Notes: generated by a model from the letters alone, not told the origin. Shown: positions 3,649-18,814, counted from the first letter of the stretch. The stretch is DNA of 25,889 nucleotides from a virus (IMGVR_UViG_3300024273_001935:1-25889), one strand, 5' to 3'. Translations and numbers: made by a program.

Positions 3649-4878
3649 ATGAAGAATGTTTTAATTTTGACTCCGGACCGGGTCGGTAGCACGTTGCTGC
3701 AACGGTTAGTTACAATTTACATGTTGCGCAAGGGAGGGGATAAACCTGTCATTAATTTACATGAATTAACCAACGGTTTAATGAAATATTATAATCCGCT
3801 ATTCAACCAGGAAGTGCTAGGAAAACCTCAAGACGGTAAGTCCTGGGGATACTATCAGAGTCTAACCGACGTTACTGAATTATTAAACTCTGCTGATCAT
3901 TATAAAACATCAAGATTGGCACATTATCATATTAAAAATCGTCAAGACACAATAGCCGAGCAGGTTCCGTTTTATAACTATCTAAATGATAACTTTTACA
4001 TAATCAGTTGTCAACGAGATAACTTGTTTGAACATGCATTAAGTTGGGTAATACAATCGCATAGTAAACGATTAAATGTATATAATCCCGCAGAAAAAAT
4101 TGATATGTTTGAGGATATTTACAAAAACGGGATAACTGCAACCCAAGAGGGATTGAACAAATATCTTACTCAGTACTTAGATTATACAAAATGGGTAGAC
4201 AATCATTTCAATGTACAATCATATTTTAATTACGACAGAGATCTGAAGAATATAGAGCAATATATTTTAGGATTAGACTTCATGCGTGATCATACGGAAA
4301 ATACATGGAAAGACATGTTTGGACAAAGTTGGGAAGATTGGAATACTTGTCATCGTATGTTGCCTAATTTAGTATTAAATCAGCCTGCGCCATCTGCTAA
4401 TACACTTAACATAACTGTTAATACAAGTAATGTAACTCAATCCCAATGGGAAAGTGTTGCCGGGCCGGACTGGCCCAAATCATTGGCGCTGGTGGCCGGC
4501 GATCCGGCAGACACTACCCTACCGCATATACAGGAAGAAATTAGCAGAATCTTCAATAAAGTACAAACAGTTACAGTATCTCAAGACAATTATAATTTTC
4601 TCAAAGTACAATTACCACAGTATCAACAAACACAGAAAGAATTAAATAATCTGGTCGACAACAAAATACTAGTAACAGGCGTTCCTATTAAACTTCAGTC
4701 CTTAAAAGAAAAGAAACATATAATTAAGAATTTTGATCAATGCATTGACTGGTACAATCAATGGGTAACTGACAACAATTATGGTAAACTATATTTTACT
4801 GATGAGTTAAATGTCCTGGCAGAAGCAGAAGAAAATAGACTGGCAGCGTCAATTATATCGACAAATTTGCTCAACTAG
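3649..4878 (+). CDS. Sulfotransferase-like P-loop protein, 409 aa
   Basis: The start MKNVLILTPDRVGSTLLQRL has the shape of a 5'-phosphosulfate-binding loop (TPDRVGST, residues 8-15) of PAPS-dependent sulfotransferases. The segment IISCQRDNLFEHALSW (about 118-133) resembles the 3'-phosphate motif, with Arg123 and Ser132 at roughly the usual spacing. The rest, including an Asn/Gln/Thr-rich middle and a helical C-terminal part, was not recognised. If active it would move sulfate from PAPS to a glycan or other acceptor. It is one of three plus-strand genes, is visibly AT-richer than the lysis genes, and its last 30 nt overlap the 3' end of a convergent SGNH gene. Family assignment is by motif only. 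Confidence 0.55.
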   Translation: MKNVLILTPDRVGSTLLQRLVTIYMLRKGGDKPVINLHELTNGLMKYYNPLFNQEVLGKPQDGKSWGYYQSLTDVTELLNSADHYKTSRLAHYHIKNRQDTIAEQVPFYNYLNDNFYIISCQRDNLFEHALSWVIQSHSKRLNVYNPAEKIDMFEDIYKNGITATQEGLNKYLTQYLDYTKWVDNHFNVQSYFNYDRDLKNIEQYILGLDFMRDHTENTWKDMFGQSWEDWNTCHRMLPNLVLNQPAPSANTLNITVNTSNVTQSQWESVAGPDWPKSLALVAGDPADTTLPHIQEEISRIFNKVQTVTVSQDNYNFLKVQLPQYQQTQKELNNLVDNKILVTGVPIKLQSLKEKKHIIKNFDQCIDWYNQWVTDNNYGKLYFTDELNVLAEAEENRLAASIISTNLLN

Positions 4879-5691
4879 CCATTTAGCAGTTACCAAATCA
4901 AAATGATGATAGTCTCTGGCATAGTCTAACTGTTCAACTTCTAGTAGATTATGTACAGATTTACAATAGTCTACTTCGCTCAACTCTAGTAGACGATCGT
5001 ACACATTGTACACAATGTCGAGCTCATTCACTATACTCGGCGGCAACTTAACAAAATCTTTAAGGCTTGTAATAGAGGGCCAGCTAGCATCTTTAACATC
5101 GTTGTATATTTTAATTAATAGTTGAATATCGTCGCCGTGGTGGGCCCTTGGAATTAACATATGTCTAATTTCAGGACCAATGACTGCCGAAATGCATGAT
5201 TTAAAATTCAGAAAATCGTCAAGGTGCGACGCGTTGACTAATGACAATCGACGACGTTCATCCGACAGCAAGATGTCTTTATGTTCTCTGCGATTCGTGT
5301 AGCTCCACATGATAACAATATTAGCCGGAGCTACTTCGTTAATAATTGATTGTGTTTTTCGTGCTATCCATTCGTTACTAGCACCATCCATACTGACATT
5401 GATACATCTACGTCCAGTTTGTTGTTGTAACAAATACGGCCATGTATGGGCAAGCGGACTGCCCACTCCTACCGTAAAGCTATCACCTATACACCATATG
5501 GCATTTTTCAATTCTTCTACGGAATCTGGCCATTCTGCGTCACGAAACCCACGACTATTATGGCTATATTCAACTTTATATGGATAATTCTTAAAATGCG
5601 TTTTATCTAAGCAATTCTCAATGCTATCAATCCCACTATAATCCCAGCGGGCATTGACACGGGAATGTAATATAAAATCAGGTAATATCAT
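4849..5691 (-). CDS. SGNH/GDSL-family hydrolase-like protein (copy A)
   Basis: A 280-aa protein with block I GDSFTVG at 69-75 (nucleophile Ser71), a block II-like NVSMDGASNE (98-107) containing Gly and Asn, and a C-terminal DYHH (260-263) giving the Asp-xx-His pair. SGNH enzymes are esterases, lipases or carbohydrate acyl-modifying enzymes; the substrate cannot be read from the sequence. A NSRGFRD segment (45-51) before block I is shared with SGNH copy C (18092-18814, NSHGFRT), so A and C are paralogues of the same layout. It overlaps the dCMP deaminase gene upstream by 14 nt and, tail to tail, the plus-strand sulfotransferase-like gene by 30 nt. Confidence 0.78.
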   Translation of the reverse strand: MILPDFILHSRVNARWDYSGIDSIENCLDKTHFKNYPYKVEYSHNSRGFRDAEWPDSVEELKNAIWCIGDSFTVGVGSPLAHTWPYLLQQQTGRRCINVSMDGASNEWIARKTQSIINEVAPANIVIMWSYTNRREHKDILLSDERRRLSLVNASHLDDFLNFKSCISAVIGPEIRHMLIPRAHHGDDIQLLIKIYNDVKDASWPSITSLKDFVKLPPSIVNELDIVYNVYDRLLELSEVDYCKSVHNLLEVEQLDYARDYHHFDLVTAKWLVEQICRYN

Positions 5692-6196
5692 TTAAATGCT
5701 CCACCATCACAGAACTTTTGGTCAAAAACTCTACACCATTGGTATCTCGGTAAGTGTGTTTGTAATATACATGCCGGATGCCACTTTGATAGATCAGCTT
5801 GGCACAATCCAAGCAGGGTGCATGTGTGACGAACATGCTGGCACCATCTCCTGATTCTGCACTGCGGGCCAATTTGGTAATGGCATTGGTTTCAGCATGG
5901 AGACATTCTGGTTTGGTTTTTAGTCCGTATCGTACATCACGCTGAACTCCTTCGTGCCACGATTCGTAAGGGTATTTTTCGTTAAAGGTATCTAGGTCAA
6001 GCCAGCCGCCTGCGCCGTTGTCCCATACTCGATCTTCACAATTGTTGTCCCAACCAGCAGGCATACCGTTGTAGCCAATTGAGATAACTCGATCGTCTCG
6101 GACCACAATAGCACCCACTTTTAAGCGCACAGCATGACTGAGTTCTGCAAATGTTTCTGCGGTTTTCATGTATGCTTGTTTTACTCTGTCTTTCAT
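5678..6196 (-). CDS. cd: dCMP deaminase
   Basis: A 172-aa cytidine/deoxycytidylate deaminase. The zinc site is clear: HAE at 100-102 (His100 ligand, Glu102 proton shuttle) and PCLDC at 127-131 (Cys128 and Cys131 ligands). The N-terminal GAIVV...SIGYNGMPAG segment (29-48) matches phage and bacterial dCMP deaminases. The enzyme turns dCMP into dUMP, feeding thymidylate synthesis during replication; members are commonly regulated by dCTP and dTTP. T4 gene cd is the family reference. It overlaps the DUF2061 gene upstream by 4 nt (ATGA) and the SGNH gene downstream by 14 nt, indicating coupled translation in one operon. Confidence 0.93.
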   Translation of the reverse strand: MKDRVKQAYMKTAETFAELSHAVRLKVGAIVVRDDRVISIGYNGMPAGWDNNCEDRVWDNGAGGWLDLDTFNEKYPYESWHEGVQRDVRYGLKTKPECLHAETNAITKLARSAESGDGASMFVTHAPCLDCAKLIYQSGIRHVYYKHTYRDTNGVEFLTKSSVMVEHLNDIT

Positions 6197-6402
6197 TTAC
6201 TCTCGTTGCCCCATTTAATTTTGTTCCATATACGCTCGTGTACAAAGTACAACACAGTGTTGAGTGTCAATTGTATCACTGCTATTGTGCCAGAAATTGC
6301 TATATCTCCCAGTACAAGATAAGATATAGCAAAAGTAGCAGTTGATCCAGTGATGCGCCAACTCAGTGTTTTTGCCATGCTGCGGGTAGATGTATCAGTC
6401 AT
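6193..6402 (-). CDS. DUF2061-type small membrane protein
   Basis: A 69-aa protein with two predicted membrane segments (about 19-36 and 38-54) and the ending VLYFVHERIWNKIKWG. The SWRITGS...FVHERIWNKI pattern matches the DUF2061 family of small membrane proteins, whose function is unknown. It overlaps both neighbours by ATGA junctions: the end of the GIY-YIG gene upstream and the start of dCMP deaminase downstream. Confidence 0.8.
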   Translation of the reverse strand: MTDTSTRSMAKTLSWRITGSTATFAISYLVLGDIAISGTIAVIQLTLNTVLYFVHERIWNKIKWGNESK

Positions 6403-7013
6403 TTAACCTCGCAGTTGTCAAAATGTTTCTTTTTCATGCTGCCTAAATATCTACCAGTAGCCTTACAATGCGGACATATAACATCGGGAGCATTTTTAAT
6501 AGTGAAGGCAGATTTTAACCGTGATTCTTTGGTGATAACTTGATTTGCTCTTGCTAATCTTATTTTTTCTTTTATATCGTCTGTCATTACTTGTTGCTTT
6601 GCCTTATCGCGTTGTCTGGCGTGACGGCCGGGATCATTGGCCCAGGCGCGCTTGGCGCTAATAGATTGTGCTACTCTGTATTCAGGATTTTTTCCGCGTT
6701 TTAGTGCAGCCGCTTTTAATTTGTCACGAACTTCTTCAGTAAGATTAAACATGAGATTGTTTCTGTTGTTATAAACATCATCGGAAGTAATATCTAAATC
6801 ATCTAACAATTTAGATTCCAGAAGTTGACATTCAGCCATCATACCCCTATGCAATATCTTTCTCTCCCAAGAATATGATGGGTTGCGGTAATCTTCCCAA
6901 AAGGTCGCCGATGCTGACGAGCAAATATAGCCGTCATCTTCTGTTCCCTTATGAAATCCTATATAAATTTTATTCAGTGCTAAATTAGTCCATTGATATA
7001 CAAATGAGTCCAT
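6399..7013 (-). CDS. GIY-YIG family (Seg-like) homing endonuclease with C-terminal zinc finger
   Basis: A 204-aa protein. The N-terminal FVYQWTN...KIYIGFHKG (residues 4-23) is a variant GIY-YIG core, followed by DGYICSS (27-33), a pattern seen in free-standing phage homing endonucleases. Glu61 or Glu66 is a candidate metal-binding residue. The middle is basic and helical and would bind DNA. The C-terminus has a CPHC...HFDNC finger (Cys180, Cys183, His197, Cys201). Such enzymes cut related phage genomes lacking the gene and spread it by recombination. No intron boundary is seen: it stands between complete genes, 45 nt downstream of the kinase/nucleotidyltransferase gene, with AAGGAGA and a late-type motif before its start. 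Confidence 0.8.
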   Translation of the reverse strand: MDSFVYQWTNLALNKIYIGFHKGTEDDGYICSSASATFWEDYRNPSYSWERKILHRGMMAECQLLESKLLDDLDITSDDVYNNRNNLMFNLTEEVRDKLKAAALKRGKNPEYRVAQSISAKRAWANDPGRHARQRDKAKQQVMTDDIKEKIRLARANQVITKESRLKSAFTIKNAPDVICPHCKATGRYLGSMKKKHFDNCEVK

Positions 7014-7028
7014 ACTATTCTCCTTAAG

Positions 7029-7037
7029 GTATTTATT
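7029..7037 (-). promoter_or_regulatory. Late-type promoter motif before the GIY-YIG gene
   Basis: Minus-strand AATAAATAC, directly followed by the AAGGAGA ribosome site and 16 nt before ATG 7013. It is the third exact copy of the nine-base motif seen before endolysin and holin. The resulting leader would be very short. It lies in the 45-bp gap between two minus-strand genes. Confidence 0.4.
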
Positions 7038-7058
7038 ATTGTGCTAACGCCCAAACAT

Positions 7059-7913
7059 TTATGTTAAGCCCATATCCTTGCGAATTTTAGTGGCAGAGAT
7101 TTGCTGTATCTCATCCGGAAGATCAATTTTGTTTATTTTATAACCCACATCACGACCATAATTAATTTCAATAATGTTTGGTACTATTTGTATTTCATAC
7201 TGACCCTGATATATAGGGTCAAGGTCTCGTCTAATGTAGTCAGTTACTTGTTTAAGAGCAAATGGATTGCTACCGTTCCAGCCTTGACAATCTCGTATCT
7301 GTACAATTACTTGCCCTGTTTTGGCAATAGCAATATCAAATAATGCTCTATGCCCTTGATGCCAGGGCTGATATCTCCCTAGTAGCATGACAGTTTCTTT
7401 TTTCCAATCAAACACAGGACGCCGACGGTTATTTAGAATATGCTCGCCGATGAACTCTGCCCACTTGTCTGCATCTTGTTCAGTTACTCTGAAGTCATAT
7501 ACTTCCGGCGGAATGAATGCTCGGTTTGTGTCATCGAACCTGCCAGCTTCAATGGTATCAACCCAAATGGTCCAGTCTGCTTTGAAGTTATTGCGCATCT
7601 CTACCAGTGGTGCAACAAAGTCGCATATAACAAAGTCTCCGGTGCATTTTACAGCAAACTCAAACATACGCAAACTTTGTCTAATACGGCCTTCTTTGCT
7701 GAAGTCCCAGTCGTTGAATTGTTTACGAATCGCGTCTGCATTGAACCAGTCGACTTTGCTAGTATACGAGATTGGCGGCAAATCTAAGTTCAGCATACGC
7801 TCTAAAGGCATTGTTTGTACTGAAGAATTTTCTTCCAAGTACTTTTTAAGGGCTGTTGCTAATGTAGTTTTACCAGAGCCCGGCAGGCCCATTACTAATA
7901 TGCGTTGTGTCAT
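7059..7913 (-). CDS. Bifunctional P-loop kinase (APS-kinase-like) fused to an HxGH nucleotidyltransferase
   Basis: A 284-aa two-domain protein starting MTQRILVMGLPGSGKTT. Domain 1 (about 1-165) has Walker A GLPGSGKT (9-16), then DWFNADAIRKQFNDWDFS and GRIRQS, and an FDDTNRAF segment, resembling adenylylsulfate kinase. Domain 2 (about 173-284) has GRYQPWHQGH (179-188, HxGH at 185-188) and ISATKIR (272-278), the two ATP-binding motifs of nucleotidylyltransferases such as NMN adenylyltransferase. Order and folds also recall PAPS synthetase, but domain 2 is closer in pattern to NadM/NadR-like enzymes. ATG 7913 is chosen because it overlaps the upstream stop as ATGA. Two sulfotransferase-like genes lie in the same operon. 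Confidence 0.7.
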   Translation of the reverse strand: MTQRILVMGLPGSGKTTLATALKKYLEENSSVQTMPLERMLNLDLPPISYTSKVDWFNADAIRKQFNDWDFSKEGRIRQSLRMFEFAVKCTGDFVICDFVAPLVEMRNNFKADWTIWVDTIEAGRFDDTNRAFIPPEVYDFRVTEQDADKWAEFIGEHILNNRRRPVFDWKKETVMLLGRYQPWHQGHRALFDIAIAKTGQVIVQIRDCQGWNGSNPFALKQVTDYIRRDLDPIYQGQYEIQIVPNIIEINYGRDVGYKINKIDLPDEIQQISATKIRKDMGLT

Positions 7914-8539
7914 GTTGTTTTTTTCGATGCTTGTTTTGCTAAGTCGTCTACCCAATGATGATCAACCTGCGTGATGTATTTACTGTTACTGTCGTTGGCT
8001 AGTATTTCTTTCAATTCTGGGCTATTGTAATCAATCGGGAAATCTAATGTACGGCTAATTTCTTTAAGATATGTTTCTTTGTACAAGTGCAACAATTCAA
8101 AACTTAAAAAGTTTATATCGGCAAATCCTGCAACTCCTGCAACTTTGTCCAAGGCCAGTGGCAAGGACTCAGTATCCCTTACGCGCTGTTGCTGCATCCT
8201 AAGAACAGTTTGGTCACGACCCAACACAGCAATCTGTACCACAATGTTCAACCGGGTTAATTCTGCAATAAACTGTTCAAAGTCGGGGACAGTCACATCG
8301 CCGTTGAGCATATAAGGAACACTAACGCTGGCCACATAGTAGTTGCTCTGACTCCAATCAAACTCGTTTAACAATGCTGGTTGCAACCAGCATTGCGCAA
8401 ATGGTTCTTGATCATGCCCAATCCAGTATGTATCTAATAGATTGCGCCAGCCAAACACTTGTGGATGCAGAGCAAATATTTTGCTCCACATATGATTACC
8501 CGATCCTTGAGGTCCGGTGATAATCAACAACTTCTTCAC
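7910..8539 (-). CDS. Sulfotransferase-like P-loop protein, 209 aa
   Basis: It starts with GTG, reading MKKLLIITGPQGSGNHMWSK; the GPQGSGNH loop (9-16) is a P-loop variant seen in sulfotransferase-like proteins of aquatic phages. A GRDQTVLRMQQQR segment sits where the 3'-phosphate-binding Arg motif would be. No signal peptide or membrane segment is seen, so it is probably cytoplasmic. The GTGA junction with the 2OG oxygenase upstream and the ATGA junction with the kinase/nucleotidyltransferase downstream show tight translational coupling. Substrate unknown. It could instead be a nucleoside or glycan kinase-like NTPase. Confidence 0.5.
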   Translation of the reverse strand: MKKLLIITGPQGSGNHMWSKIFALHPQVFGWRNLLDTYWIGHDQEPFAQCWLQPALLNEFDWSQSNYYVASVSVPYMLNGDVTVPDFEQFIAELTRLNIVVQIAVLGRDQTVLRMQQQRVRDTESLPLALDKVAGVAGFADINFLSFELLHLYKETYLKEISRTLDFPIDYNSPELKEILANDSNSKYITQVDHHWVDDLAKQASKKTT

Positions 8540-9225
8540 AGTGTGTATATTGTAGCAGAATTAGCAGCAGCAAGCAACCTACGAGTCTTGTCAGTTTTGA
8601 GTCCTGTTATCTGCAACACCGGACGCATGCTACGGCTGGCATTGGCAGTGGCATGTGGCACATTCTCCCAATCAAAGATATGCACAGCACCAGCTCGCCA
8701 ATTGCTGTATGTACAAGTGCCATATGAGTAGAATTGCCCTGGCTCCCAATCTGCCAACATAACACTCATACGGATAACACGCTCGGAATCGTCGGGGCAG
8801 CGTTCTTGTAACTTGTCAATATGCAGATTAAACATCTGTCCCGGTTGCTGATAGTGCATACGAATCTTGCCATCTTCGATGCCGAAGTATTCGCTCATCT
8901 TGGTCAGTGTGGGCAATGCACTGATATCAAACACAGCATCTGTCAACTGTAGATCAACTGGTGCGCCTGTGGTACGCAAATCGTTTTCTTCTTGAGTCAG
9001 CATAGGACTAACAGTGTCGTCTGTGTTGCTGTAAAACTTACGAGTTGCCCAGGTGATCGGCTTGCCCTGTGCTAGTTTAACTTCCTCTGTCCAGTCACCT
9101 TCAAAGTGTCCCAGCAATGTAAACCATTCTCCTGGAACGTCTACACGGTGATTGTCAAAGTGATATGTACTGTGGTCAACACACCAATCCCAACTACTGG
9201 TGTAGTCATCCTGAGTCTTATGCAT
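8536..9225 (-). CDS. 2-oxoglutarate/Fe(II)-dependent oxygenase-like protein
   Basis: A 229-aa protein with a double-stranded beta-helix pattern: HIDK at 135-138 (His135 and Asp137 as iron ligands), then VMLADWEPGQFYSYG (155-169), VPHATANAS (189-197, His191 as the third ligand) and RPVLQITG (201-208), where Arg201 or Arg198 may hold 2-oxoglutarate. This H-x-D...H...R layout is that of aspartyl/asparaginyl hydroxylase-like enzymes, common in T4-like aquatic phages. Substrate unknown; protein or small-molecule hydroxylation is possible. Its AAGGAA ribosome site and first 8 nt lie within the end of tctA, so it is translated with the transporter genes. Confidence 0.72.
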   Translation of the reverse strand: MHKTQDDYTSSWDWCVDHSTYHFDNHRVDVPGEWFTLLGHFEGDWTEEVKLAQGKPITWATRKFYSNTDDTVSPMLTQEENDLRTTGAPVDLQLTDAVFDISALPTLTKMSEYFGIEDGKIRMHYQQPGQMFNLHIDKLQERCPDDSERVIRMSVMLADWEPGQFYSYGTCTYSNWRAGAVHIFDWENVPHATANASRSMRPVLQITGLKTDKTRRLLAAANSATIYTL

Positions 9226-10660
9226 AATCTATTCCTTTATTTTTGTTTGTGACGCTACGAACTACGATGTATACTGCAACCAACAGCGTGACTATGAATA
9301 TAGGCCGGGTTAGTAAATCTTCTATGTTGTATAGTTGTGCAGTTTGTTTGATGTAGCTTTCCAAGCGTTCGGCCACTACATATGTGACCAACACTGCGGG
9401 TCTGCTTATGTCGAAGTATTTAAGCAAAGTTCCCAATGCACAACAAATTGCCAAGATTGCAATATCCTGCCAGCCGCCGGTGTATTCAAGATTGGCCCAG
9501 ACCATGATAGCAATTATAATTGTAGCGTATATCCAGTAAGGTATATCCAGTATCTTTATAATGTACTTCATAAAGAACAAACTCAGCAGGCCAACCAATA
9601 TAGTCCCGCCTACAAAGCCCGCACCCAGTGTCCAGATAAATTTGCTATCTTCCAACAGCGCCGGTGTACCCAGTTCAACACCAAAGTACATAAACAGTGC
9701 CATCATGATGGCAGCAAACGGGGCAGCAGGAATACCAAACAACACAGTGGGCAGCATACTGGCTACCTTTTGTGCATTGTTGGCACCTTCGCACCCCAGT
9801 AGTCCTTTGGGATTGCCGTTGCCAAATGTATCTTTAGGATGCTTTGCCACAGTGGCGCCGTATGCTAAAAAGTCACCAATGGCTCCGCCTACTCCCGGCA
9901 GTAAGCCTGTAACAAAACCGATGAAGCCACCGCGCATCATGTCGCGCCAGTTTGTTATACAGTCGCGAAATCCTTGTCTAACCTGTGGCCAGTAGTTGTC
10001 CAACTGCGGAACTCGCGTGTGTCGTTCTTTAAATCCCCAGATAAGTTCTGGTATTCCAAACAGTCCCGAAATTAGCGGGATCATCTGTAGTCCTGCGCCG
10101 AGATATTCCCACCCAAATGTATATCTAAACACCCCAGTGGAAGGCTCTTGTCCAATCATACCAAGCCATGCGCCCAATGCAATTGCTATGATACTTTTAT
10201 AAAAGTTCTTACTGGCAACAAAGCCCACACAGGCCAATGACATTATCATGAAACCAGCAAACTCTGGAATGCCAAACCACAGAACAATTTTACCATACAA
10301 CGGCATCAGTGCAAATGCCAGTGTACCGTACAGCACACCATTGAATGTGCTGTCAAAAATAGCAATGCCCATTGCTCTGCTGGCTTCGCCCTTCTTGGTC
10401 ATTGGGTAGCCGTCAATAACACAGGCCGCTGTGGTGCTGGCACCAGGAATACCAGTTAAGATACTGGTATAACTGTCGGCGCTGGCACACGCAGCAGTGA
10501 TAGCTGTTAAAAATATAATACCTGCATACGGATCACTTAGAAAGTAAGGTGCAATGCCAAACACTGTGATCAGTGCTGTGGTAACTCCTGCAATAGGAAT
10601 AATCCCTATCAGCAGTCCGTACAATGTTCCCAACAGTATCCATCCTGCGTATATCAGCAT
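9218..10660 (-). CDS. tctA: Tripartite tricarboxylate transporter permease TctA
   Basis: A 480-aa, very hydrophobic protein with about 11-12 membrane segments along its whole length, close to the usual ~500 aa. Typical TctA motifs are intact: the N-terminal GTLYGLLIGIIPIAG, TSILTGIPGAS (about 65-75), and in the second half GLLPGVGGAIGDFLAYG, with the second PG-x-GG loop, and GIPAAPFAA. TctA is the large inner-membrane subunit that moves citrate-like or other carboxylates using an ion gradient, with substrate delivered by the periplasmic TctC. It starts 4 nt after the end of tctC and overlaps the oxygenase gene by 8 nt. The small TctB subunit, normally between tctC and tctA, is absent. It appears full length, and nothing suggests decay. 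Confidence 0.93.
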   Translation of the reverse strand: MLIYAGWILLGTLYGLLIGIIPIAGVTTALITVFGIAPYFLSDPYAGIIFLTAITAACASADSYTSILTGIPGASTTAACVIDGYPMTKKGEASRAMGIAIFDSTFNGVLYGTLAFALMPLYGKIVLWFGIPEFAGFMIMSLACVGFVASKNFYKSIIAIALGAWLGMIGQEPSTGVFRYTFGWEYLGAGLQMIPLISGLFGIPELIWGFKERHTRVPQLDNYWPQVRQGFRDCITNWRDMMRGGFIGFVTGLLPGVGGAIGDFLAYGATVAKHPKDTFGNGNPKGLLGCEGANNAQKVASMLPTVLFGIPAAPFAAIMMALFMYFGVELGTPALLEDSKFIWTLGAGFVGGTILVGLLSLFFMKYIIKILDIPYWIYATIIIAIMVWANLEYTGGWQDIAILAICCALGTLLKYFDISRPAVLVTYVVAERLESYIKQTAQLYNIEDLLTRPIFIVTLLVAVYIVVRSVTNKNKGIDYA

Positions 10661-10663
10661 TGT

Positions 10664-11734
10664 TTACTTCTTTAAGAGTTCTGGTTTAAAAACGCTAGGA
10701 AAGCCGTATGCTTCTTGATTCCAGCGCACAGCACCGTTGAGTGCCGGCTCTGTTACCAACTTGAATAGTTCGCCAATCACTGCGTCGCCATCGGCACCAA
10801 CAATCCATCCGTATTGACCAGCATCGCGTTCAATAGCATCCATTGTTTCTTTATCGGCTAGCATTTTAGTCATTGCAGTACGCAGTGTAGCTGTGTTGGG
10901 GTTGCCTTTGTTTACCCAGAGAGATTTCTGTATTACATCACGCCAGTTGCGTGTCAAGCGATATGCTTCGTACAGTTCGCCCCGTGGTAATTCGCCCCAT
11001 GCTTTTTTGTAAACATCTTCAAATTGTGTACCAGGAAAGTTCACATCAGCAATTTGTTTCTTTTTCGCCAAGTCGTAAACACCATGTGTGAACCATACTT
11101 CGTTTGTTTTGGCAACATCATCACCGGTGTAGAATTTGAACCAAGCTGCTGGGCTTTCACGGGTAGTATTGAACTCTCCTCGCATAAAGCCCAGGCGCTT
11201 TTCGTTGCCCTTGACACCATTGACCCAGATTACACGCTTTTTAAAGCAGGCTAGATAAGCGTCGATACTGCCGTTTTTTTGCGGGCCGCACACCAACATG
11301 GCCATTGCTGCACCGTCGGGTTCATAGCCCGAGCCGCCTGCTACTTTGAATGTGCTTGTTTTTGTATCAGCTTCTCGGCTCTTGCCAACAACAATGTCAA
11401 GATTCATCATGCCAATTGCACTGTACTGACGATAGTCGTAATCGACATTGTCCAGTAAGAATGAAACACCGTTGCCACCGTGAGCAACCATGATCATTTT
11501 GGGATCAGTGCGTAGTTTGTTATGGAACTCGTTGAATCCCGGAATATCTCGTGCACCGGGAATGTGACGAACAACCACTGGTTCATCTGTGAACTTGCTC
11601 AGGCCTCGAGCAATGATTCCGGCCCATACACTGGTACCTTGCCCGGGACCTTGCGGCACAATCAAAGTATAGTCAGCTTGCGCAGCGCTCATGATACCTG
11701 CACTGGCCAGTAATGCGATTAGTAATTTTTTCAT
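10664..11734 (-). CDS. tctC: TctC-like periplasmic carboxylate-binding protein (Bug family)
   Basis: A 356-aa protein with a signal peptide MKKLLIALLASAGIMSAAQA and likely cleavage after AQA (residue 20). The mature protein begins YTLIVPQGPGQGTSVWAG and continues with VVVRHIPGARDIPGFNEF, matching the N-terminal carboxylate-binding part of Bug/TctC proteins. The C-terminal ADKETMDAIERDAGQYGW region also fits. It is somewhat longer than the usual ~320 aa. It captures a carboxylate in the periplasm and passes it to TctA. ATG 11734 is chosen over an in-frame start at 11764 because AGGAAA precedes it and it begins the signal peptide. It is first of the tctC-tctA pair and 13 nt after a P-loop gene. 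Confidence 0.88.
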   Translation of the reverse strand: MKKLLIALLASAGIMSAAQADYTLIVPQGPGQGTSVWAGIIARGLSKFTDEPVVVRHIPGARDIPGFNEFHNKLRTDPKMIMVAHGGNGVSFLLDNVDYDYRQYSAIGMMNLDIVVGKSREADTKTSTFKVAGGSGYEPDGAAMAMLVCGPQKNGSIDAYLACFKKRVIWVNGVKGNEKRLGFMRGEFNTTRESPAAWFKFYTGDDVAKTNEVWFTHGVYDLAKKKQIADVNFPGTQFEDVYKKAWGELPRGELYEAYRLTRNWRDVIQKSLWVNKGNPNTATLRTAMTKMLADKETMDAIERDAGQYGWIVGADGDAVIGELFKLVTEPALNGAVRWNQEAYGFPSVFKPELLKK

Positions 11735-11747
11735 AGTCGATTTCCTT

Positions 11748-12371
11748 TTAAATAATAGTAACACTGATATCTGCAGACTGGTAGTCTTGAAAATATTCAG
11801 CCGGGGGGATTTTGATGCCCAGTGTATTGCACAGCATCTGATTGTTTGCAGGCGCTAAGCCTGCATACTTTCGAGTAGCAGCAAGTATATTGGCATTTTG
11901 CTTTTGTATAATTGTTGCCATTGTTTTTAAGTCTTTGTAGTATTCTGCATAGTCGGGGTAAGTGATATCAAAGTGGCCGCACTTTACCCACCATCCTAAG
12001 CAAGCGTCATCTGGCCTATGCACAAGTACAATAGGACAGTCGGGCCATGTCGCTTTGATATAGTCAATGTTGTCAGCAAACACATGACTTTTAATAATAC
12101 GAACGGCCCCGGGGGCGGAAAACGGACGGTCAAACTCTGCCTCGGCACTCAGTGGGGAAACTTCACTAAGGTGATCGAAAAACCGTCCAAACTCCATCCC
12201 GGGATCAAAGTATGCACCGGTATGCATCAGCTGCATGGTGCCCGGAGCATCGTGATAATAAGTTCTCGCTTCGCTGTAATCACTACGATCGATATCAGGG
12301 CTGTAGTAAATGTTTTTGGTCACGCTGGACCATTTAGAGCCGGGTGTTCCCACTACGAAAATATATTTCAA
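11748..12371 (-). CDS. Sulfotransferase-like P-loop protein, 207 aa
   Basis: It probably starts with TTG at 12371, preceded by AGGAAA; a TTG at 12404 is in frame but lacks a ribosome site. The product begins KYIFVVGTPGSKWSSV, a loop like the phosphosulfate-binding loop of sulfotransferases. VRIIKSHVFADN (from about residue 89) and CPIVLVHRPDDACLGWW are in the order and style of the second core strand and the Arg-containing 3'-phosphate motif. Substrate unknown. It is the first gene of the minus-strand operon that continues into tctC and tctA. The 80-bp divergent gap to the plus-strand methyltransferase is AT-rich and holds a weak late-like ATAAATAAAT, but no confident promoter. Confidence 0.5.
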   Translation of the reverse strand: MKYIFVVGTPGSKWSSVTKNIYYSPDIDRSDYSEARTYYHDAPGTMQLMHTGAYFDPGMEFGRFFDHLSEVSPLSAEAEFDRPFSAPGAVRIIKSHVFADNIDYIKATWPDCPIVLVHRPDDACLGWWVKCGHFDITYPDYAEYYKDLKTMATIIQKQNANILAATRKYAGLAPANNQMLCNTLGIKIPPAEYFQDYQSADISVTII

Positions 12372-12451
12372 TGAGTTTCCTAAGATAATTAAATGTACAA
12401 ACAAATTTTATACTGTATGTATGATTTATTTATCTAATAGGAAAATTTTTA

Positions 12452-13189
12452 ATGAATACCAAGATTTTTAAGCTGATTAAAGAGAATTTAGAACTTGCCT
12501 TTAATTTACCCAAGTACTCTGCAATTTGTGCAGACATCTCTGAGTCCACTGTGGTGGATGCACTGCCTTGGACTCCTGCTCGTTATCGCAAGTTCAAAGA
12601 CGCTGTAGAAGCAAAACTTGCAATGGAGGACTGTTCTTTCACAGGCACACTGAACAGCATTGTTGACAAACTAAGCGAACGCTATATCACTCGTTTCTTT
12701 GGAGAAATCTGGAAACCACGCACAGGTGATTACGATTACACAGGGTGGGCATTGGCAGAGGCAATTCAAAAGCAACACCCTAAGGCTGTGCTGGATGTGG
12801 GCTGCGGGTATCATCCGTTTAAAGGTCGTATCGATAACTTGGTTGGTATTGACCCTTACAACCATGCAGCAGATCTTGAAGTGGATATCCTAGACTATCG
12901 AGTAACTCCGGCCAGCTTTGATCATATCATTGCACTGGGATCTATCAACTTCAACAGCAAGGACGAAATCCAAGCACGATTTGCGCATTGTGTAACTTTG
13001 CTCATGACCGGTGGCAAGTTTTACTTACGGGCCAATCCTGGTATTACACACAAGACCGGACCGTATGTTGATATCTTCTCGTGGACTTTCGAAGTAGCAA
13101 ATGAGTTTGCAGAAACTTATAATCTAAAGTTGCTGGAATTTAAACGAGATGCTAATGACAGGTTGTATTTTGTGTATCAAAAACTTTAA
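12452..13189 (+). CDS. Class I SAM-dependent methyltransferase
   Basis: A 245-aa protein. AVLDVGCGYHPFKG (about residues 114-127) is motif I, followed by NLVGIDPYNHAADLEVDI, giving the acidic motif II residue. FDHIIALGSINF (about 155-166) fits motif IV, and LLMTGGKFYLRANPG (about 183-197) fits the post-IV strand. This is a Rossmann-type methyltransferase of the small-molecule/protein kind, without the SPPY/NPPY motif of DNA base methylases. Acceptor unknown. AGGAAA precedes the ATG. It is one of three plus-strand genes, is followed by a strong intrinsic terminator, and overlaps the convergent SGNH copy B by 38 nt. Confidence 0.85.
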   Translation: MNTKIFKLIKENLELAFNLPKYSAICADISESTVVDALPWTPARYRKFKDAVEAKLAMEDCSFTGTLNSIVDKLSERYITRFFGEIWKPRTGDYDYTGWALAEAIQKQHPKAVLDVGCGYHPFKGRIDNLVGIDPYNHAADLEVDILDYRVTPASFDHIIALGSINFNSKDEIQARFAHCVTLLMTGGKFYLRANPGITHKTGPYVDIFSWTFEVANEFAETYNLKLLEFKRDANDRLYFVYQKL

Positions 13190-13850
13190 TCATTAACTCG
13201 CCAGCAGCAGCATGTGCTGCTTCCAGTGGATGCCCTATGCTAGTTATAGGGTATCCATTTTTTTTGGACCATTGCTGAAAATTCAAACTGTTAAATGTGG
13301 TCAAGTGCGGACGAATATATTCTTGTAAATCAACAATTCCGGGTGTGGTGTGCCACCTCTGGTCCAGCATCAACTCATCCATATAGGTCATTATAAACGG
13401 ACATTTTTTTTGTAATAGCACATCAATTACTGATTTGATATACATCAGTGTTGTTAGCTTATCGCGGATTTCTGAGTGCAAATCTTTGTAGTAAGTTTTT
13501 GCCTGCGGTGTGTTGTCTATTGGCATAAGTGTTGACCACGGCATCGAATCCGACCACTGAGCTGGATTGTTAATGTCGACATAATCGAATCGATCTATGT
13601 AGGTCCAATTTATTACAAATAATGCGTTTTCGTTTGTAGCAAGGTGTGTTAATGCTCGCTCGGCAATTTGCAAATTGCCCGCGCCAGGACGGGCATAGCA
13701 CAAATATGGATAGTTAAGATGCTGTGCAATATGTGCTGGCCATGTTAACTCACTATGTCTCGGCTGTTGTTTTTTACTCGGGTCAAACAAAACTTCGTCG
13801 CTTAACTCACTGCCGTAGATAAAACTACAGCCAAAGCTTTTTAAATTCAT
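13152..13850 (-). CDS. SGNH/GDSL-family hydrolase-like protein (copy B)
   Basis: A 232-aa protein. FGCSFIYGSEL at 6-16 is a block I variant in which Cys replaces Asp before the nucleophile Ser9. ARPGAGNLQIAE (about 53-64) fits block II with Gly and Asn, and SIGHPLEAAH (204-213) is a block V-like end with His207, although the usual Asp three residues earlier is Ser204. It is shorter and more diverged than copies A and C. Function would be an esterase-like step on an unknown substrate. The coding DNA for the block V region also holds the plus-strand terminator of the convergent methyltransferase. A weak TTGACC...GACACT promoter-like pair with 17-bp spacing lies just before the ATG. Confidence 0.65.
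   Translation of the reverse strand: MNLKSFGCSFIYGSELSDEVLFDPSKKQQPRHSELTWPAHIAQHLNYPYLCYARPGAGNLQIAERALTHLATNENALFVINWTYIDRFDYVDINNPAQWSDSMPWSTLMPIDNTPQAKTYYKDLHSEIRDKLTTLMYIKSVIDVLLQKKCPFIMTYMDELMLDQRWHTTPGIVDLQEYIRPHLTTFNSLNFQQWSKKNGYPITSIGHPLEAAHAAAGELMIKVFDTQNTTCH
13227..13265 (+). terminator. Strong intrinsic terminator for the plus-strand methyltransferase
   Basis: TGGATGCCCTAT (13227-13238) pairs with ATAGGGTATCCA (13246-13257), a 12-bp stem with one G-U pair and a 7-nt loop, followed by eight T residues (13258-13265). It lies 38 nt after the methyltransferase stop and wholly inside the coding region of the antisense SGNH copy B. A second small hairpin (AGCAGCA/TGCTGCT) lies just upstream at about 13207-13222. 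Confidence 0.82.
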
Positions 13851-13882
13851 AGGTATAAGTGTCTGCTGTTACGCAGAGTAGG

Positions 13883-14990: not shown

Positions 14991-15049
14991 ACTGTTATTT
15001 AGCCAAATCTGGCACTCCAGTGAAAAACTGATTTATTTCGGTAGTCAAG

Positions 15050-16315
15050 TTATTTCTTTTCAAATACCCATAGGTCTTCGAAGTTGCCGCCCACTGTTTT
15101 TTTAGCTTGCCTGGAACCACTGATAGCACTCCACTGAACTCTATGCTGTGAGTATAGAGGTAAATGTTTAAGAACTACATCTCTCATATCTTGACTGATC
15201 TGTACTTCTTCCTTAGCTTTGTTTCTATAGTTAGAAATAACAAAGCCAAATTTAGCTCCGGGCTTTAGTACTTCGCAGGACAATTTAACTGTTTCCTCCC
15301 AGTAACCTTTTAACCAATCATTATAGTTTGGGAAATTAGCAAAACTTTGATCTTCGCTATCATAAATTTCCAAATCAAAATACGGAGGACTAAACAATAC
15401 TGCATCGACTTGATTTTTGTACTTGACATCAAATTGATGCTTGCTGGCCAATTGTTCACTGGGGCATAGATATAAATCTACATTTTTTTCCGGAAGTTCA
15501 AATAAACTATTTTCTCTAATAGAGTTATATTCTTGGTGTAATAGATTGCCATTATTCACTACACCCGGGATAACATCCGTGGCAATGAAATTTTTCCAAT
15601 TAGTGCTGTAAAAACCTAATTGATAAGCATTCCATCCCATAACAGGTGCAAATATAGTGTCACCCTTGAATACATTTTCCATTATCCCTTTAAAAGTAGC
15701 TGGATTAAAGACACTAGCACGATTGGCGCCAATCATAAAGTCCAAACAAAATTGACTGTAATTATCATCAATTTTACAGATATGGTCAAAGAACGCAGGC
15801 GCTGCTAGGCTATTACGAATCTTAAACTCTTCGAACATTATTTTAAGTAAGCCGAAACAAAACTCACTGTCGTTGTTATAAAGTTTTTTAGTATTATAAA
15901 AGTTTTCGAAATTGATATTTTTACAAATTCTGCCGTATTTGCTGTTAGTTCTTCCACTAAAAGTATTCTCGTCAAATATAGTTTTAGTAGGAATATCGAA
16001 ATAAAATTTTAAATTTTCAGTTAGCGAGCCGTAACGGCGGAACCATTCTGTCAGTGCTTTTTCGGGTTCCAGTACCAGCATCTTATACATTTTTTGTTTG
16101 TATAAATCTAGTCGCTGTTTACGATCATCTTTCTTCGCGACGCGATCAATAAAGGTGTCAATGTCGCTGCGCACTGCAAAGTTGCCTGTTTTATCGCTGA
16201 TATTTAAAACGGATAACTTTTTGCAAAAATCTTCATACGAAATTTGTTTGTTAAATTTAAATAACGCTAAAAAATCAGTCAGTGTAAAAATCAATTGTGG
16301 TGTCATATTGTGCAT
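15050..16315 (-). CDS. DNA methyltransferase (N4-cytosine/N6-adenine type)
   Basis: A 421-aa protein with the amino-methyltransferase motif IV SPPY at 309-312 (FSPPYFDLE). Upstream, FAPVMGWNAYQLGF (about 222-235) followed by IATDVIPG fits the SAM-binding motif I and its acidic partner. Downstream, EVLKPGAKFGFVISNYRNK fits the following strand, and RQAKKTVGGNFEDLWVFEK is a typical end of such methylases. The N-terminal ~200 aa are not recognised and could recognise the target. It methylates DNA bases, protecting phage DNA or pairing with a nuclease. It lies 49 nt downstream of a candidate restriction endonuclease on the same strand and is AT-rich, like that gene. ATG 16306 (residue 4) is an alternative start. 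Confidence 0.82.
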   Translation of the reverse strand: MHNMTPQLIFTLTDFLALFKFNKQISYEDFCKKLSVLNISDKTGNFAVRSDIDTFIDRVAKKDDRKQRLDLYKQKMYKMLVLEPEKALTEWFRRYGSLTENLKFYFDIPTKTIFDENTFSGRTNSKYGRICKNINFENFYNTKKLYNNDSEFCFGLLKIMFEEFKIRNSLAAPAFFDHICKIDDNYSQFCLDFMIGANRASVFNPATFKGIMENVFKGDTIFAPVMGWNAYQLGFYSTNWKNFIATDVIPGVVNNGNLLHQEYNSIRENSLFELPEKNVDLYLCPSEQLASKHQFDVKYKNQVDAVLFSPPYFDLEIYDSEDQSFANFPNYNDWLKGYWEETVKLSCEVLKPGAKFGFVISNYRNKAKEEVQISQDMRDVVLKHLPLYSQHRVQWSAISGSRQAKKTVGGNFEDLWVFEKK

Positions 16316-16325
16316 TCTTAAAATA

Positions 16326-16332
16326 GTATTTA
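16326..16332 (-). promoter_or_regulatory. Late-type TAAATAC motif before the DNA methyltransferase
   Basis: Minus-strand GTAAATACTATT in the 49-bp gap between the candidate endonuclease and the methyltransferase, ending 11 nt before ATG 16315. It could give the methyltransferase its own late transcription besides readthrough from the endonuclease promoter. Confidence 0.3.
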
Positions 16333-16364
16333 CGTCAATTTCGAATTACTATTTTAATTTCTAA

Positions 16365-17126
16365 TTAATTAAATTGAATGTCGGTGTCTCGGTGCACGAC
16401 AAATTTTTCGGGCCAGTTATTATGCAGATGAAATTGCGGACAATGATTATAGTCGCCTGCTGGTCCACCGGAATTTTTCATTTGCATAAAAAAGATGGGC
16501 TTGCCGATTTCCCCAGCTTGTTCGCTTGGAATTGCACATCTTAATACAGTTCCTTTGGGCATTGTAACCCAAACACAAGTTTCAACAATCCAGTCTACTA
16601 ACCGATTCACATCAACAGCACAAAAGCCGCCTTTTTTCTTGTTGGCCCAGATAAGCCAAGATGCTTTATCCTCGTCTTTTAAACTTTGTAAAAGTAAGAT
16701 AGCAATCTTTCGATTATTGGCATTGAACCACAATGGCACCTCGTCCCAACTCGGAATATTGGAACAGTGCAATCGTTTGTATTTGAGTTCGGTAGTAGAC
16801 AAGTTTAACCCAGCGGCCCATTCTGCCCATTGTGCATTGTCGTTTGTGCCTAGAAAGCGATCTAGCTTGTTGTAGATGGCTGGCGGCATGTTAAGTTGTG
16901 ATGCTAAACTACGCAGGGTAGGTAAATGTACTTGAGTATTTTTTCCCGACGCGTATTTTACACTTACACGGGTTTGTGTACTACCGTTGATGCCGATTAG
17001 ATCGCCCTTGGTTCGTGTACTACCATCAGTTTCCACTCGCTCGAAATTAAATATCTTAGCAACATATTCTTTAAGAACATCGTTCTTTTCTAAGTCACGA
17101 CCTGCCCAATATTCATTACTGCCCAT
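16365..17126 (-). CDS. Candidate restriction endonuclease (PD-(D/E)xK-like), partner of the DNA methyltransferase
   Basis: A 253-aa protein of no family I can name. Two segments look nuclease-like: GDLIG (41-45) followed by RVSVKYASGKNTQVH (53-67), where Asp42 and a SxK (55-57) could form a variant D...(E/S)xK site with Gln65; and FFMQMKNSGGPAGDYN near the C-terminus. The strongest argument is context: same strand, 49 nt before a DNA methyltransferase, in an AT-rich two-gene unit with its own perfect sigma-70 promoter. ATG 17126 is preferred over TTG 17138 because TTTGGAG precedes it at good spacing. Alternatives are a methylation-related accessory or specificity protein. Function is inferred, not shown. 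Confidence 0.5.
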   Translation of the reverse strand: MGSNEYWAGRDLEKNDVLKEYVAKIFNFERVETDGSTRTKGDLIGINGSTQTRVSVKYASGKNTQVHLPTLRSLASQLNMPPAIYNKLDRFLGTNDNAQWAEWAAGLNLSTTELKYKRLHCSNIPSWDEVPLWFNANNRKIAILLLQSLKDEDKASWLIWANKKKGGFCAVDVNRLVDWIVETCVWVTMPKGTVLRCAIPSEQAGEIGKPIFFMQMKNSGGPAGDYNHCPQFHLHNNWPEKFVVHRDTDIQFN

Positions 17127-17156
17127 TTCGAACTCCAAATGTTATTGTAAGCTAGA

Positions 17157-17185
17157 ATTATAGCGTAATAAGCGATGTTTGTCAA
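17157..17185 (-). promoter_or_regulatory. Perfect consensus sigma-70 promoter for the endonuclease/methyltransferase unit
   Basis: Minus-strand TTGACA (17180-17185) and TATAAT (17157-17162), both exact consensus hexamers, separated by exactly 17 bp. The predicted start near 17150 leaves a leader of about 24 nt with the GGAG ribosome site before ATG 17126. It is the strongest promoter in the window and should be used by host RNA polymerase immediately on infection. Confidence 0.88.
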
Positions 17186-17308
17186 CCAAAAGAAGTGTTG
17201 TTTTTAGCCACATTGTGTCAGCTGTAGCAAGTGAACGACCCGCCAAGAGTAATACTTATGCCGCAAAAATCAATTATCACCGCCCATAGAATAGATTTTT
17301 TTCTGGCC

Positions 17309-17340
17309 TAAATACTATTAACAGCATATCGCTGTTGATT
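17309..17340 (+). promoter_or_regulatory. Late-type motif and hairpin upstream of phoH
   Basis: CTAAATACT (core TAAATAC at 17309-17315) lies 55 nt before the phoH start in the 243-bp divergent gap. It is followed at once by the inverted repeat AACAGC/GCTGTT (17320-17325 and 17331-17336, 5-nt loop). If the motif is a late promoter core, the hairpin would sit near the 5' end of the phoH transcript. The rest of the gap (17186-17300) holds no gene or RNA that I can recognise. Confidence 0.4.
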
Positions 17341-17369
17341 ACCATCCCCCACCAATCTGGAGAAATAAC

Positions 17370-18101
17370 TTGAGCAGACAAAGAGGCGCCAAAGCACAAA
17401 AACGTATCACACAAGTAGAAAACACAATTGATTTTTCCCAAGGACAAACATATCGTAAACCAAAATCCATTGCACTTGTACCCCGAACGCGAAACCAAGA
17501 GCGACTAGTACTAGCATTGCTCGACGAGGACCAGCACATTGTAGTCACTGCAGGTCCAGCAGGCACAGGCAAGACTTATCTGGCCATGCAGGCCGCAGTC
17601 AAATCACTCAAAGAAGGCACATGCGAACGCATTGTGTTAACACGACCAGCAGTGGGTGTGGAAGACGAAGATCACGGTTTCTTGCCCGGTGATTTAAATG
17701 CCAAGATGGAACCGTGGACTCGTCCGTTGATGGATGTACTGCGTGAAACATATCGTCCACAGGACATTGCTGCTATGATTGAGAATCAATTGATTGAAAT
17801 ATCACCACTGGCGTTCATGCGTGGGCGTACATTCAAACACAGTTGGATCATTGCTGACGAAATGCAAAATGCCACTCCTAATCAAATGAAAATGCTAATG
17901 ACTCGTATTGGCGTGGGCAGTAAGATTGTGATCACAGGCGATGTTGAACAAACTGACCGCCCTGGCAGCAACAACGGTCTATTGGATCTATGCACTAGAT
18001 TAGACCGCATGGATGTAAACGGAATTGCAGTGTGCCACTTAGAAGCACGAGACGTTCAGCGTCATGCTATCATTGGCAATGTACTAAAACTTTACTCTTG
18101 A
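17370..18101 (+). CDS. phoH: PhoH-family P-loop ATPase
   Basis: A 243-aa protein, essentially one PhoH domain. Walker A GPAGTGKT is at 62-69, preceded by the NQERLVLALLD helix. RIVLTRPAVGVEDEDHGFLPGD (87-108) is the PhoH signature; Walker B IIADEMQN is at 160-167; and KIVITGDVEQTD (185-196) is the sensor region. PhoH is very common in aquatic phages; its role is unclear, with RNA-linked ATPase/helicase-like activity shown for some PhoH proteins. The start is TTG at 17370, with GGAGA about 8 nt upstream. It is one of three plus-strand genes, and its last 10 nt overlap the convergent SGNH copy C. Confidence 0.95.
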   Translation: MSRQRGAKAQKRITQVENTIDFSQGQTYRKPKSIALVPRTRNQERLVLALLDEDQHIVVTAGPAGTGKTYLAMQAAVKSLKEGTCERIVLTRPAVGVEDEDHGFLPGDLNAKMEPWTRPLMDVLRETYRPQDIAAMIENQLIEISPLAFMRGRTFKHSWIIADEMQNATPNQMKMLMTRIGVGSKIVITGDVEQTDRPGSNNGLLDLCTRLDRMDVNGIAVCHLEARDVQRHAIIGNVLKLYS

Positions 18102-18814
18102 TCAACTTGACTCATTCTACTAATAATAGTTTGAGCAAGTTTTTGATATGACAGTCGCCCGGGATGCATCAAATCTCGGGCGCAATCGATAAATGGCACT
18201 TCTTCACGAGCAATAATGATGGGTGTGACATTTTCTAAGTGACACAGCATTTGAAATGCCAGTGTGTTTTTTTCGTGATTGACCCTGGAATTCTCACTTA
18301 CTAAAAACCAATACTTAACGAAGTAATCGTTGGCGCAAGGACCTTGCGCCACATCGCCTGGCAGCATATTCATTACAACCGCTTCGTCGAACAATTCAAA
18401 TCTGTAACTATCCGTTTGCAACCAGACTGCATACTTGGGTTTCATCAGTTTTAAATAATGAGCAGCCATTCTGAATGCCGTATCGTTACTGCAACCTGCA
18501 TGTCCTAGATTGATACACAATAGCCCGGTTAGTGATTCTAGTTGAGACGGCCATGTTTCGTGATTATGCACCCCGGTGCCCATGGTAAAGCTACAACCAA
18601 AACACAGTACATCTGCAGGTGTTTCCACTTCGTGTGTTCTAAAACCGTGAGAGTTAAACTTGTATTCAATGTCTACATCAAGATAACCAGCGTCAATCAT
18701 CTTCTGACGAGTCACTGCATTGCTGATATTTTTTTTGTACAGTGCTTGACTGTCTGACAGATCCCATGCTGCTGTTTGATTAATGGAATTATGATAATTG
18801 TGAATCGGAATCAT
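18092..18814 (-). CDS. SGNH/GDSL-family hydrolase-like protein (copy C)
   Basis: A 240-aa protein starting MIPIHNYHNSIN. FGCSFTMGTG (72-81) is block I with nucleophile Ser75 (GCS instead of GDS), INLGHAGCSND (101-111) is block II with Gly and Asn, WLQTDSYR fits block III, and RDLMH (213-217) gives the Asp214-xx-His217 pair. The NSHGFRT...TWP layout matches copy A, so the two are paralogues. ATG 18814 is chosen over an in-frame upstream start at 18970 because it forms an ATGA overlap with the HAD gene; the longer version would overlap that gene by 160 nt. It converges on phoH with a 10-nt overlap. Confidence 0.76.
   Translation of the reverse strand: MIPIHNYHNSINQTAAWDLSDSQALYKKNISNAVTRQKMIDAGYLDVDIEYKFNSHGFRTHEVETPADVLCFGCSFTMGTGVHNHETWPSQLESLTGLLCINLGHAGCSNDTAFRMAAHYLKLMKPKYAVWLQTDSYRFELFDEAVVMNMLPGDVAQGPCANDYFVKYWFLVSENSRVNHEKNTLAFQMLCHLENVTPIIIAREEVPFIDCARDLMHPGRLSYQKLAQTIISRMSQVDQE
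18156..18182. repeat. GC-rich hairpin downstream of phoH inside SGNH copy C
   Basis: CGCCCGGGA (18156-18164) pairs with TCTCGGGCG (18174-18182), a 9-bp stem with one G-U pair and a 9-nt loop. It lies 55 nt after the phoH stop. No T-tract follows on either strand, so it is not a standard terminator. It may block 3' decay or slow polymerase on the phoH transcript. It coincides with codons for the RDLMHPG catalytic segment of the antisense SGNH protein. Confidence 0.45.

What the first reader, a model, noticed from the sequence alone, without database searches (positions are those of the whole stretch)
3649..18814. Every plus-strand gene converges on an SGNH gene with overlapping 3' ends
There are only three plus-strand genes in the window (sulfotransferase-like, methyltransferase, phoH). 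Each meets a minus-strand SGNH-like gene tail to tail, with overlaps of 30, 38 and 10 nt. Chance seems unlikely. The pairs may be mobile cassettes that move as [plus gene + SGNH], or the SGNH 3' end may be a favoured landing site for inserted plus-strand genes.
Basis: seen in the sequence. Interest (0 to 1): 0.72.

Follow-up and report, generated by a model that had tools for sequence, protein, structure and literature searches.

The report
Three facing gene pairs, three histories
In this freshwater phage fragment all three oppositely oriented genes do run tail to tail into SGNH-hydrolase-like genes, but comparison with hundreds of related loci shows three separate histories: one real travelling two-gene unit (probable sulfotransferase plus esterase), one exchangeable gene at the edge of a fixed SGNH gene, and one SGNH gene inserted beside an ancient, fixed phoH gene.

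Summary
The geometry is confirmed: three plus-strand genes each overlap the 3' end of a minus-strand SGNH-like gene, by 30, 38 and 10 nt. It is not one rule. In four related jumbo phage genomes 22 of 35 SGNH genes lie away from convergent junctions and 70 of 83 convergent junctions lack SGNH; without the three pair families the enrichment disappears (4/26, expected 2.5). Overlap at such junctions is ordinary (51 of 83).

Pair 1 (sulfotransferase-like + SGNH1) behaves as a unit. An SGNH1-type gene lies within six genes in 39 of 58 loci, in convergent, co-directional and divergent arrangements. The flanks differ, and the two protein distance matrices correlate with each other (0.70-0.78) better than with neighbours.

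Pair 2: SGNH2 is a fixed resident beside a core gene. The methyltransferase at its 3' end has been exchanged repeatedly (well-supported branches force at least 7 label changes).

Pair 3: phoH is the fixed lone gene and SGNH3 is cargo. HAD, a GIY-YIG-like protein or SGNH3 can sit there, all ending in the same 'DQE-stop' read from the antisense of phoH.

So "plus gene + SGNH cassette" holds for pair 1 only. Its likely role, PAPS-dependent sulfation plus deacylation of a shared substrate, is inferred. Neither protein matches 50,697 phage records.

The parts
3649..4878 (+). PLUS1: sulfotransferase-fold protein (P-loop GSTLLQR; invariant R123 and S132), 409 aa; partner of SGNH1
4849..5691 (-). SGNH1: SGNH/GDSL hydrolase, invariant S71, D260, H263 across 35 homologues; 30-nt tail overlap with PLUS1
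4849..4878 (.). overlap PLUS1/SGNH1, 30 nt; length varies from 9 to 65 nt in relatives
7059..7955 (-). APS-kinase-like + NMNAT-like nucleotidyltransferase fusion; within 3 genes of 18 of 22 convergent PLUS1/SGNH1 pairs; possible source of PAPS (inferred)
12452..13189 (+). PLUS2: methyltransferase-like gene at the edge of the variable metabolic module; exchanged repeatedly
13152..13850 (-). SGNH2: SGNH-like gene resident beside h187; Asp of the DxxH motif not conserved
13152..13189 (.). overlap MTase/SGNH2, 38 nt; the last residues of SGNH2 are antisense of the MTase 3' end
13225..13259 (+). intrinsic-terminator-like hairpin plus T-run for the MTase, written in the SGNH2 codons around its active-site His; conserved in the nearest relatives
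17370..18101 (+). PLUS3: phoH; fixed lone plus-strand gene, also alone on its strand in Pseudomonas phage PA5oct
18092..18814 (-). SGNH3: cargo gene between phoH and HAD, start overlapping the HAD stop by 4 nt; last codons Asp-Gln-Glu-stop supplied by antisense of the phoH end
18811..19407 (-). HAD-like core gene; takes the phoH-facing position with the same 10-nt overlap in the near relatives L001, L004, L005 and L007

Best explanation
The pattern is three unrelated events that happen to give the same geometry. (1) The gene at 3649-4878 and SGNH1 form a real, co-inherited two-gene unit that has moved between places in related phage genomes; it most likely encodes a PAPS-dependent sulfotransferase and an SGNH esterase working on one substrate. 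(2) SGNH2 is a resident next to a conserved core block, and its 3' end is the border of a variable metabolic module whose outermost gene is the inverted methyltransferase; that gene is repeatedly replaced. (3) phoH is an ancient, fixed, inverted gene, and the position at its 3' end accepts cargo, here SGNH3. The overlaps arise because a gene placed tail to tail at a junction reads on into its neighbour until the neighbour's antisense supplies a stop codon. Shown here: the arrangements, tree and linkage results, and the shared DQE-stop ends. Inferred: enzymatic activities, common substrate, and why tail-to-tail junctions tolerate insertions (no promoter or start site is disrupted).
For: Pair 1: 58 non-identical loci, 22 adjacent convergent with 9-65 nt overlap, 4 adjacent co-directional (L307, L308, L316, L318), 1 adjacent divergent (L325), 9 co-directional three or four genes away; second, divergent copy in G004; pair on either side of the APS-kinase gene and at 316 kb in G002; distance correlation 0.70-0.78 against 0.05-0.53 with neighbours. 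Pair 2: SGNH2 beside h187 in 46 of 64 loci, facing MTase in 40 and a co-directional gene in 23; SGNH2 distances follow phoH 0.85 and h187 0.77 but MTase only 0.50; SGNH2-facing MTases need 10 label changes, at least 7 forced by starred branches, while their SGNH2 genes form one supported group with one co-directional member. Pair 3: phoH faces HAD in L001, L004, L005, L007 and a GIY-YIG-like protein in L003, each with a 10-nt overlap; HAD, the GIY-YIG-like protein and SGNH3 share the DQE-stop end; SGNH3 sits only between phoH and HAD in 5 of 5; phoH inverted in PA5oct without SGNH.
Against: Loci are contig fragments and many are related, so counts are not independent events. Seventeen PLUS1 loci show no SGNH1-type gene nearby; many are cut close to PLUS1, but some (L326, L328) are not. 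SGNH3 may be ancestral and lost repeatedly rather than recently inserted. The MTase exchange could be homologous allele replacement inside the gene rather than insertion at the junction: the 38-nt overlap is more alike than the gene body. Activities rest on fold and motif only; P-loop kinases score within about one Z unit of sulfotransferases for PLUS1. SGNH1 in the window is below the Pfam cut-off.
Confidence: 0.78

Rival explanations
1. All three are mobile cassettes that move as [plus gene + SGNH].
For: Pair 1 is absent from the sequenced neighbourhoods of L003-L006 and sits in different places in G001 and G002.
Against: SGNH2 and MTase have different histories; phoH is present without SGNH3 in nearly all relatives; no flanking repeats at the three sites.
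Confidence: 0.07
2. SGNH 3' ends are general landing sites for inserted plus-strand genes.
For: MTase is present, absent or replaced at the 3' end of a resident SGNH2.
Against: 22 of 35 SGNH genes in four large genomes end beside a co-directional gene; outside the three pair families convergent position is at background; phoH is older than SGNH3 at its junction.
Confidence: 0.08
3. The overlaps themselves are selected: convergent transcription gives antisense control of plus gene and SGNH.
For: A terminator-like hairpin for the MTase lies inside SGNH2 in the window and close relatives, stronger than synonymous shuffles in the window (p 0.005), L003 and L005.
Against: Overlap length varies (9-65 nt for pair 1, 4-56 for pair 2), pair 1 occurs in non-overlapping and co-directional layouts, and the hairpin is missing in L091 and L166.
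Confidence: 0.1
4. Coincidence: three SGNH genes fell on the facing positions by chance.
Against: Naive probability about 1/6000; pair 1 linkage and the single-clade SGNH3 position are clearly not random. The coincidence of three different histories in one 15-kb stretch is nevertheless partly chance.
Confidence: 0.1

Closest known systems
Convergent overlapping gene pairs formed by stop-codon movement (PMC4161906, PMC2174442)
   Same: Tail-to-tail overlaps of a few to some tens of nt, explained by loss and relocation of a stop codon into the neighbour
   Different: Here one fixed gene (phoH) supplies the same antisense stop and last residues to three unrelated partner genes
Stf0 trehalose sulfotransferase and PAPS-dependent sulfotransferases (PDB 1tex, SULT, NDST1)
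   Same: Predicted fold, P-loop start, invariant Arg and Ser spaced as in the 3'-phosphate site
   Different: No sequence-profile match in PDB or consistently in Pfam; about 10-14% identity; substrate and activity unknown
SGNH/GDSL esterases (TesA 1ivn, 1yzf)
   Same: Fold, block-I GDS nucleophile, Asp-x-x-His at the C-terminus in SGNH1
   Different: N-terminal extension of about 60 residues; no SGNH1 match among phage records
PhoH in jumbo phages such as Pseudomonas phage PA5oct
   Same: phoH as lone inverted gene in a one-strand region that also carries DnaJ and chaperonin genes
   Different: PA5oct has no SGNH and no overlap at this junction
NDST heparan N-deacetylase/N-sulfotransferase (functional analogy only)
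   Same: Removal of an acyl group coupled to sulfation
   Different: Two separate genes, SGNH instead of the NDST deacetylase domain; analogy untested

Membership tests
SGNH/GDSL hydrolase (SGNH1) | Block I Gly-x-Ser, block II Gly, Asn, block V Asp-x-x-His | tested here: met
   G69, S71, G103, N106, D260, H263 invariant in 35 sequences
SGNH/GDSL hydrolase (SGNH1) | SGNH fold | tested here: met
   Model pLDDT 91; top PDB matches are GDSL acylhydrolases and TesA
SGNH/GDSL hydrolase (SGNH1) | Pfam gathering score for the window protein | tested here: not met
   18.5 bits against 32.9; 26 of 35 members match PF13472 at E<=0.01. A score cut-off, not a structural feature; family placement rests on motifs and fold
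SGNH/GDSL hydrolase (SGNH2) | Catalytic Asp of Asp-x-x-His | tested here: not met
   His207 invariant but not the Asp three residues before it (Ser in the window, Asp in L001); SGNH2 is SGNH-like, activity doubtful
SGNH/GDSL hydrolase (SGNH3) | Block I Gly-x-Ser and Asp-x-x-His | tested here: met
   G73, S75, D214, H217 conserved in all three sequences
PAPS-dependent sulfotransferase (PLUS1) | Sulfotransferase fold | tested here: met
   Foldseek best 1tex E 2.5e-4; VIA Z 11.1 to 1tex, 196 residues, rmsd 4.0; P-loop kinases at Z about 10
PAPS-dependent sulfotransferase (PLUS1) | 3'-phosphate-binding Arg...Ser | tested here: met
   R123 and S132 invariant in 49 sequences; the assignment of their role is from established family knowledge
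PAPS-dependent sulfotransferase (PLUS1) | Sulfate transfer from PAPS | not testable with these tools
   needs enzyme assay
Mobile two-gene cassette (pair 1) | Both genes gained, lost or moved together | tested here: met
Mobile two-gene cassette (pair 1) | Terminal repeats or own mobility gene | tested here: not met
   No flanking repeat pair found and neither gene is a mobility gene; so it travels by recombination rather than as a self-moving element (inference)
Mobile two-gene cassette (pair 2) | Concordant histories of both genes | tested here: not met
Mobile two-gene cassette (pair 3) | Plus gene and SGNH gained together | tested here: not met
   phoH without SGNH3 in most relatives

The most novel reading that the evidence does not exclude
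The sulfotransferase-like gene and SGNH1 form an undescribed two-enzyme module (deacylate, then sulfate the freed position of a glycan, lipid or phage decoration) supplied with PAPS by the neighbouring APS-kinase/nucleotidyltransferase fusion, spread among uncultivated freshwater phages and kept together by function whatever the gene orientation.
Probability: 0.4. Interest if true: 0.62.

Novelty: new variant of a known kind. Interest (0 to 1): 0.45.

Why it matters
It warns against reading one rule from a striking local pattern, and replaces it with testable statements. It reveals a conserved sulfotransferase-SGNH gene pair not found among the phage records searched. It also gives a clear natural example of one fixed gene lending a stop codon to successive unrelated neighbours, and suggests that tail-to-tail seams are where phage modules are exchanged.

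Tried and rejected
A search for close SGNH3 relatives with the single window protein found nothing; an alignment query did. DNA-level search of phage records gave only a short lysozyme match. PLUS1 was not found in bacterial genomes by pattern scan nor in PDB by profile. A common promoter was looked for only by the T4-like late-promoter word and a sigma-70-type consensus scan: no TATAAATA occurs in the window and the sigma-70 matches were no more frequent than in shuffles. No flanking repeat pair was found at the three sites. Two initial SGNH hits (L001:3872, L005:3909) lacked the motifs and were removed. No PLUS1-SGNH1 fusion protein was found. A defence role was not supported by PADLOC (only a weak hit for the methyltransferase). 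The embedded terminator in SGNH2 was considered as a general cause of the overlaps and rejected as general.

Full report
What is there. The window is a 25.9-kb IMG/VR record from a relative of jumbo phages (contigs of 320-365 kb). All genes but three lie on the minus strand. Each plus gene overlaps the 3' end of a minus-strand SGNH-like gene by 30, 38 and 10 nt.

Is it a rule? I called genes in four large related records fetched almost whole (320-347 kb) and searched them with an SGNH profile. They hold 1577 genes, 83 convergent junctions and 35 SGNH genes. Thirteen SGNH genes face a convergent neighbour, against 3.7 expected, but nine of these belong to the same three pair families. The rest are at background (4 of 26, expected 2.5). 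Seventy of 83 junctions lack SGNH, and 51 of 83 overlap. Thus neither the SGNH association nor the overlap is a general rule. A tree of 80 SGNH proteins shows that partner identity follows clades: the phoH-facing three form one clade (100/100); the methyltransferase-facing fifteen sit in a supported group of sixteen with one co-directional member; the PLUS1-facing seven sit in a group of eight with one co-directional member (11 label changes against 29 in shuffles). Each arrangement therefore probably arose once and was inherited.

Pair 1. A deep scan gave 80 PLUS1 loci, 58 PLUS1 genes after removing identical copies. An SGNH1-type gene lies within six genes in 39. The layouts are 22 adjacent convergent (overlap 9-65 nt), four adjacent co-directional downstream, one adjacent divergent and nine co-directional three or four genes upstream, among others. 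One genome carries a second, divergent copy. The pair lies between lysozyme and the APS-kinase gene in some phages, on the other side of the APS-kinase gene in others, and elsewhere in G002. Protein distances of PLUS1 and SGNH1 correlate at 0.70-0.78 in sets that also hold a neighbour gene (0.63 over all 34 pairs), while each correlates with neighbours at 0.05-0.53. Persistence of linkage through changes of orientation points to shared function rather than to the overlap. No match was found in 50,697 phage records; the bacterial genome scan found no PLUS1 relative.

What pair 1 encodes. SGNH1 has an SGNH fold and an invariant Ser71, Asp260, His263. PLUS1 has a sulfotransferase-like fold, best match Stf0, with invariant Arg123 and Ser132; kinases score close, so this is likely rather than certain. 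An APS-kinase/nucleotidyltransferase fusion, above the Pfam APS-kinase cut-off, lies within three genes of 18 of the 22 convergent pairs. I infer a sulfation step coupled to deacylation; this is untested.

Pair 2. SGNH2 lies beside core gene h187 in 46 of 64 loci, facing the methyltransferase in 40 and a co-directional gene in 23. SGNH2 distances follow phoH (0.85) and h187 (0.77) more than the methyltransferase (0.50). The SGNH2-facing methyltransferases are scattered in their tree, with ten label changes, at least seven forced by well-supported branches. In other phages the same methyltransferase, usually divergent from a TctC-like gene, faces other genes such as nucleases or phosphoesterases, often with a 4-nt overlap. 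So the junction is a border between a variable module and the core. The last 38 nt are more conserved than the gene body, which fits exchange with a breakpoint in or near the gene, double-coding constraint, or both.

Pair 3. phoH faces an opposite-strand gene in most relatives and is inverted and alone on its strand in Pseudomonas phage PA5oct. In Agrobacterium phage Atu_ph07 and Sinorhizobium phage Phosso it is co-directional with its neighbours. In the closest relatives it faces HAD with the same 10-nt overlap; in L003 a GIY-YIG-like protein (identified by eye, no Pfam match) sits there. HAD (L001, L004), the GIY-YIG-like protein and SGNH3 all end in Asp-Gln-Glu-stop, read from the antisense of phoH's last codons. 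SGNH3 was found only in this position (5 of 5). Thus SGNH3 is cargo beside a fixed gene.

An extra lead. On the plus strand a strong terminator-like hairpin lies inside SGNH2 at 13225-13259, conserved in position in near relatives and stronger than synonymous shuffles in the window, L003 and L005. It could end methyltransferase transcription. It is not present in all lineages.

Limits. Gene calls are mine; contigs are fragments; loci share ancestry; all functions are inferred from sequence and predicted structure.

Noticed in passing
window 9218-11764: TctA and a TctC-like protein of a tripartite tricarboxylate transporter in a phage. A TctC-like gene is divergently linked to the methyltransferase in many of its loci. 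A tctA domain hit on SUP05 viral contigs was reported before (PMC4164917).
   Followed up: partly
window 7059-7955: Fusion of an APS-kinase-like domain with an NMNAT-like nucleotidyltransferase, conserved in relatives.
   Followed up: partly
window 13225-13259: Terminator-like hairpin on the plus strand formed by SGNH2 codons around the active-site His.
   Followed up: partly
L431 near 6001: SGNH2 appears flipped in place: co-directional with the methyltransferase and convergent on h187 with a 24-nt overlap.
   Followed up: no
L128/L297 first 8.6 kb: Two tandem copies of the sulfotransferase-like gene followed by one SGNH1.
   Followed up: no
window 15050-17138: DNA-methylase-like gene (N6_N4_Mtase) and a 257-aa unknown between h190 and phoH, also present in L007/L008 but not found there in L001-L006; possibly an inserted modification cassette.
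   Followed up: no
window 21181-22845: Radical SAM/SPASM protein between the cytidylyltransferase-like gene and GroES, not found at this place in the closest relatives.
   Followed up: no
G001-G004 (L169-L237): SGNH genes are numerous in these jumbo phages, 7-12 per genome, several as tandem co-directional pairs.
   Followed up: partly
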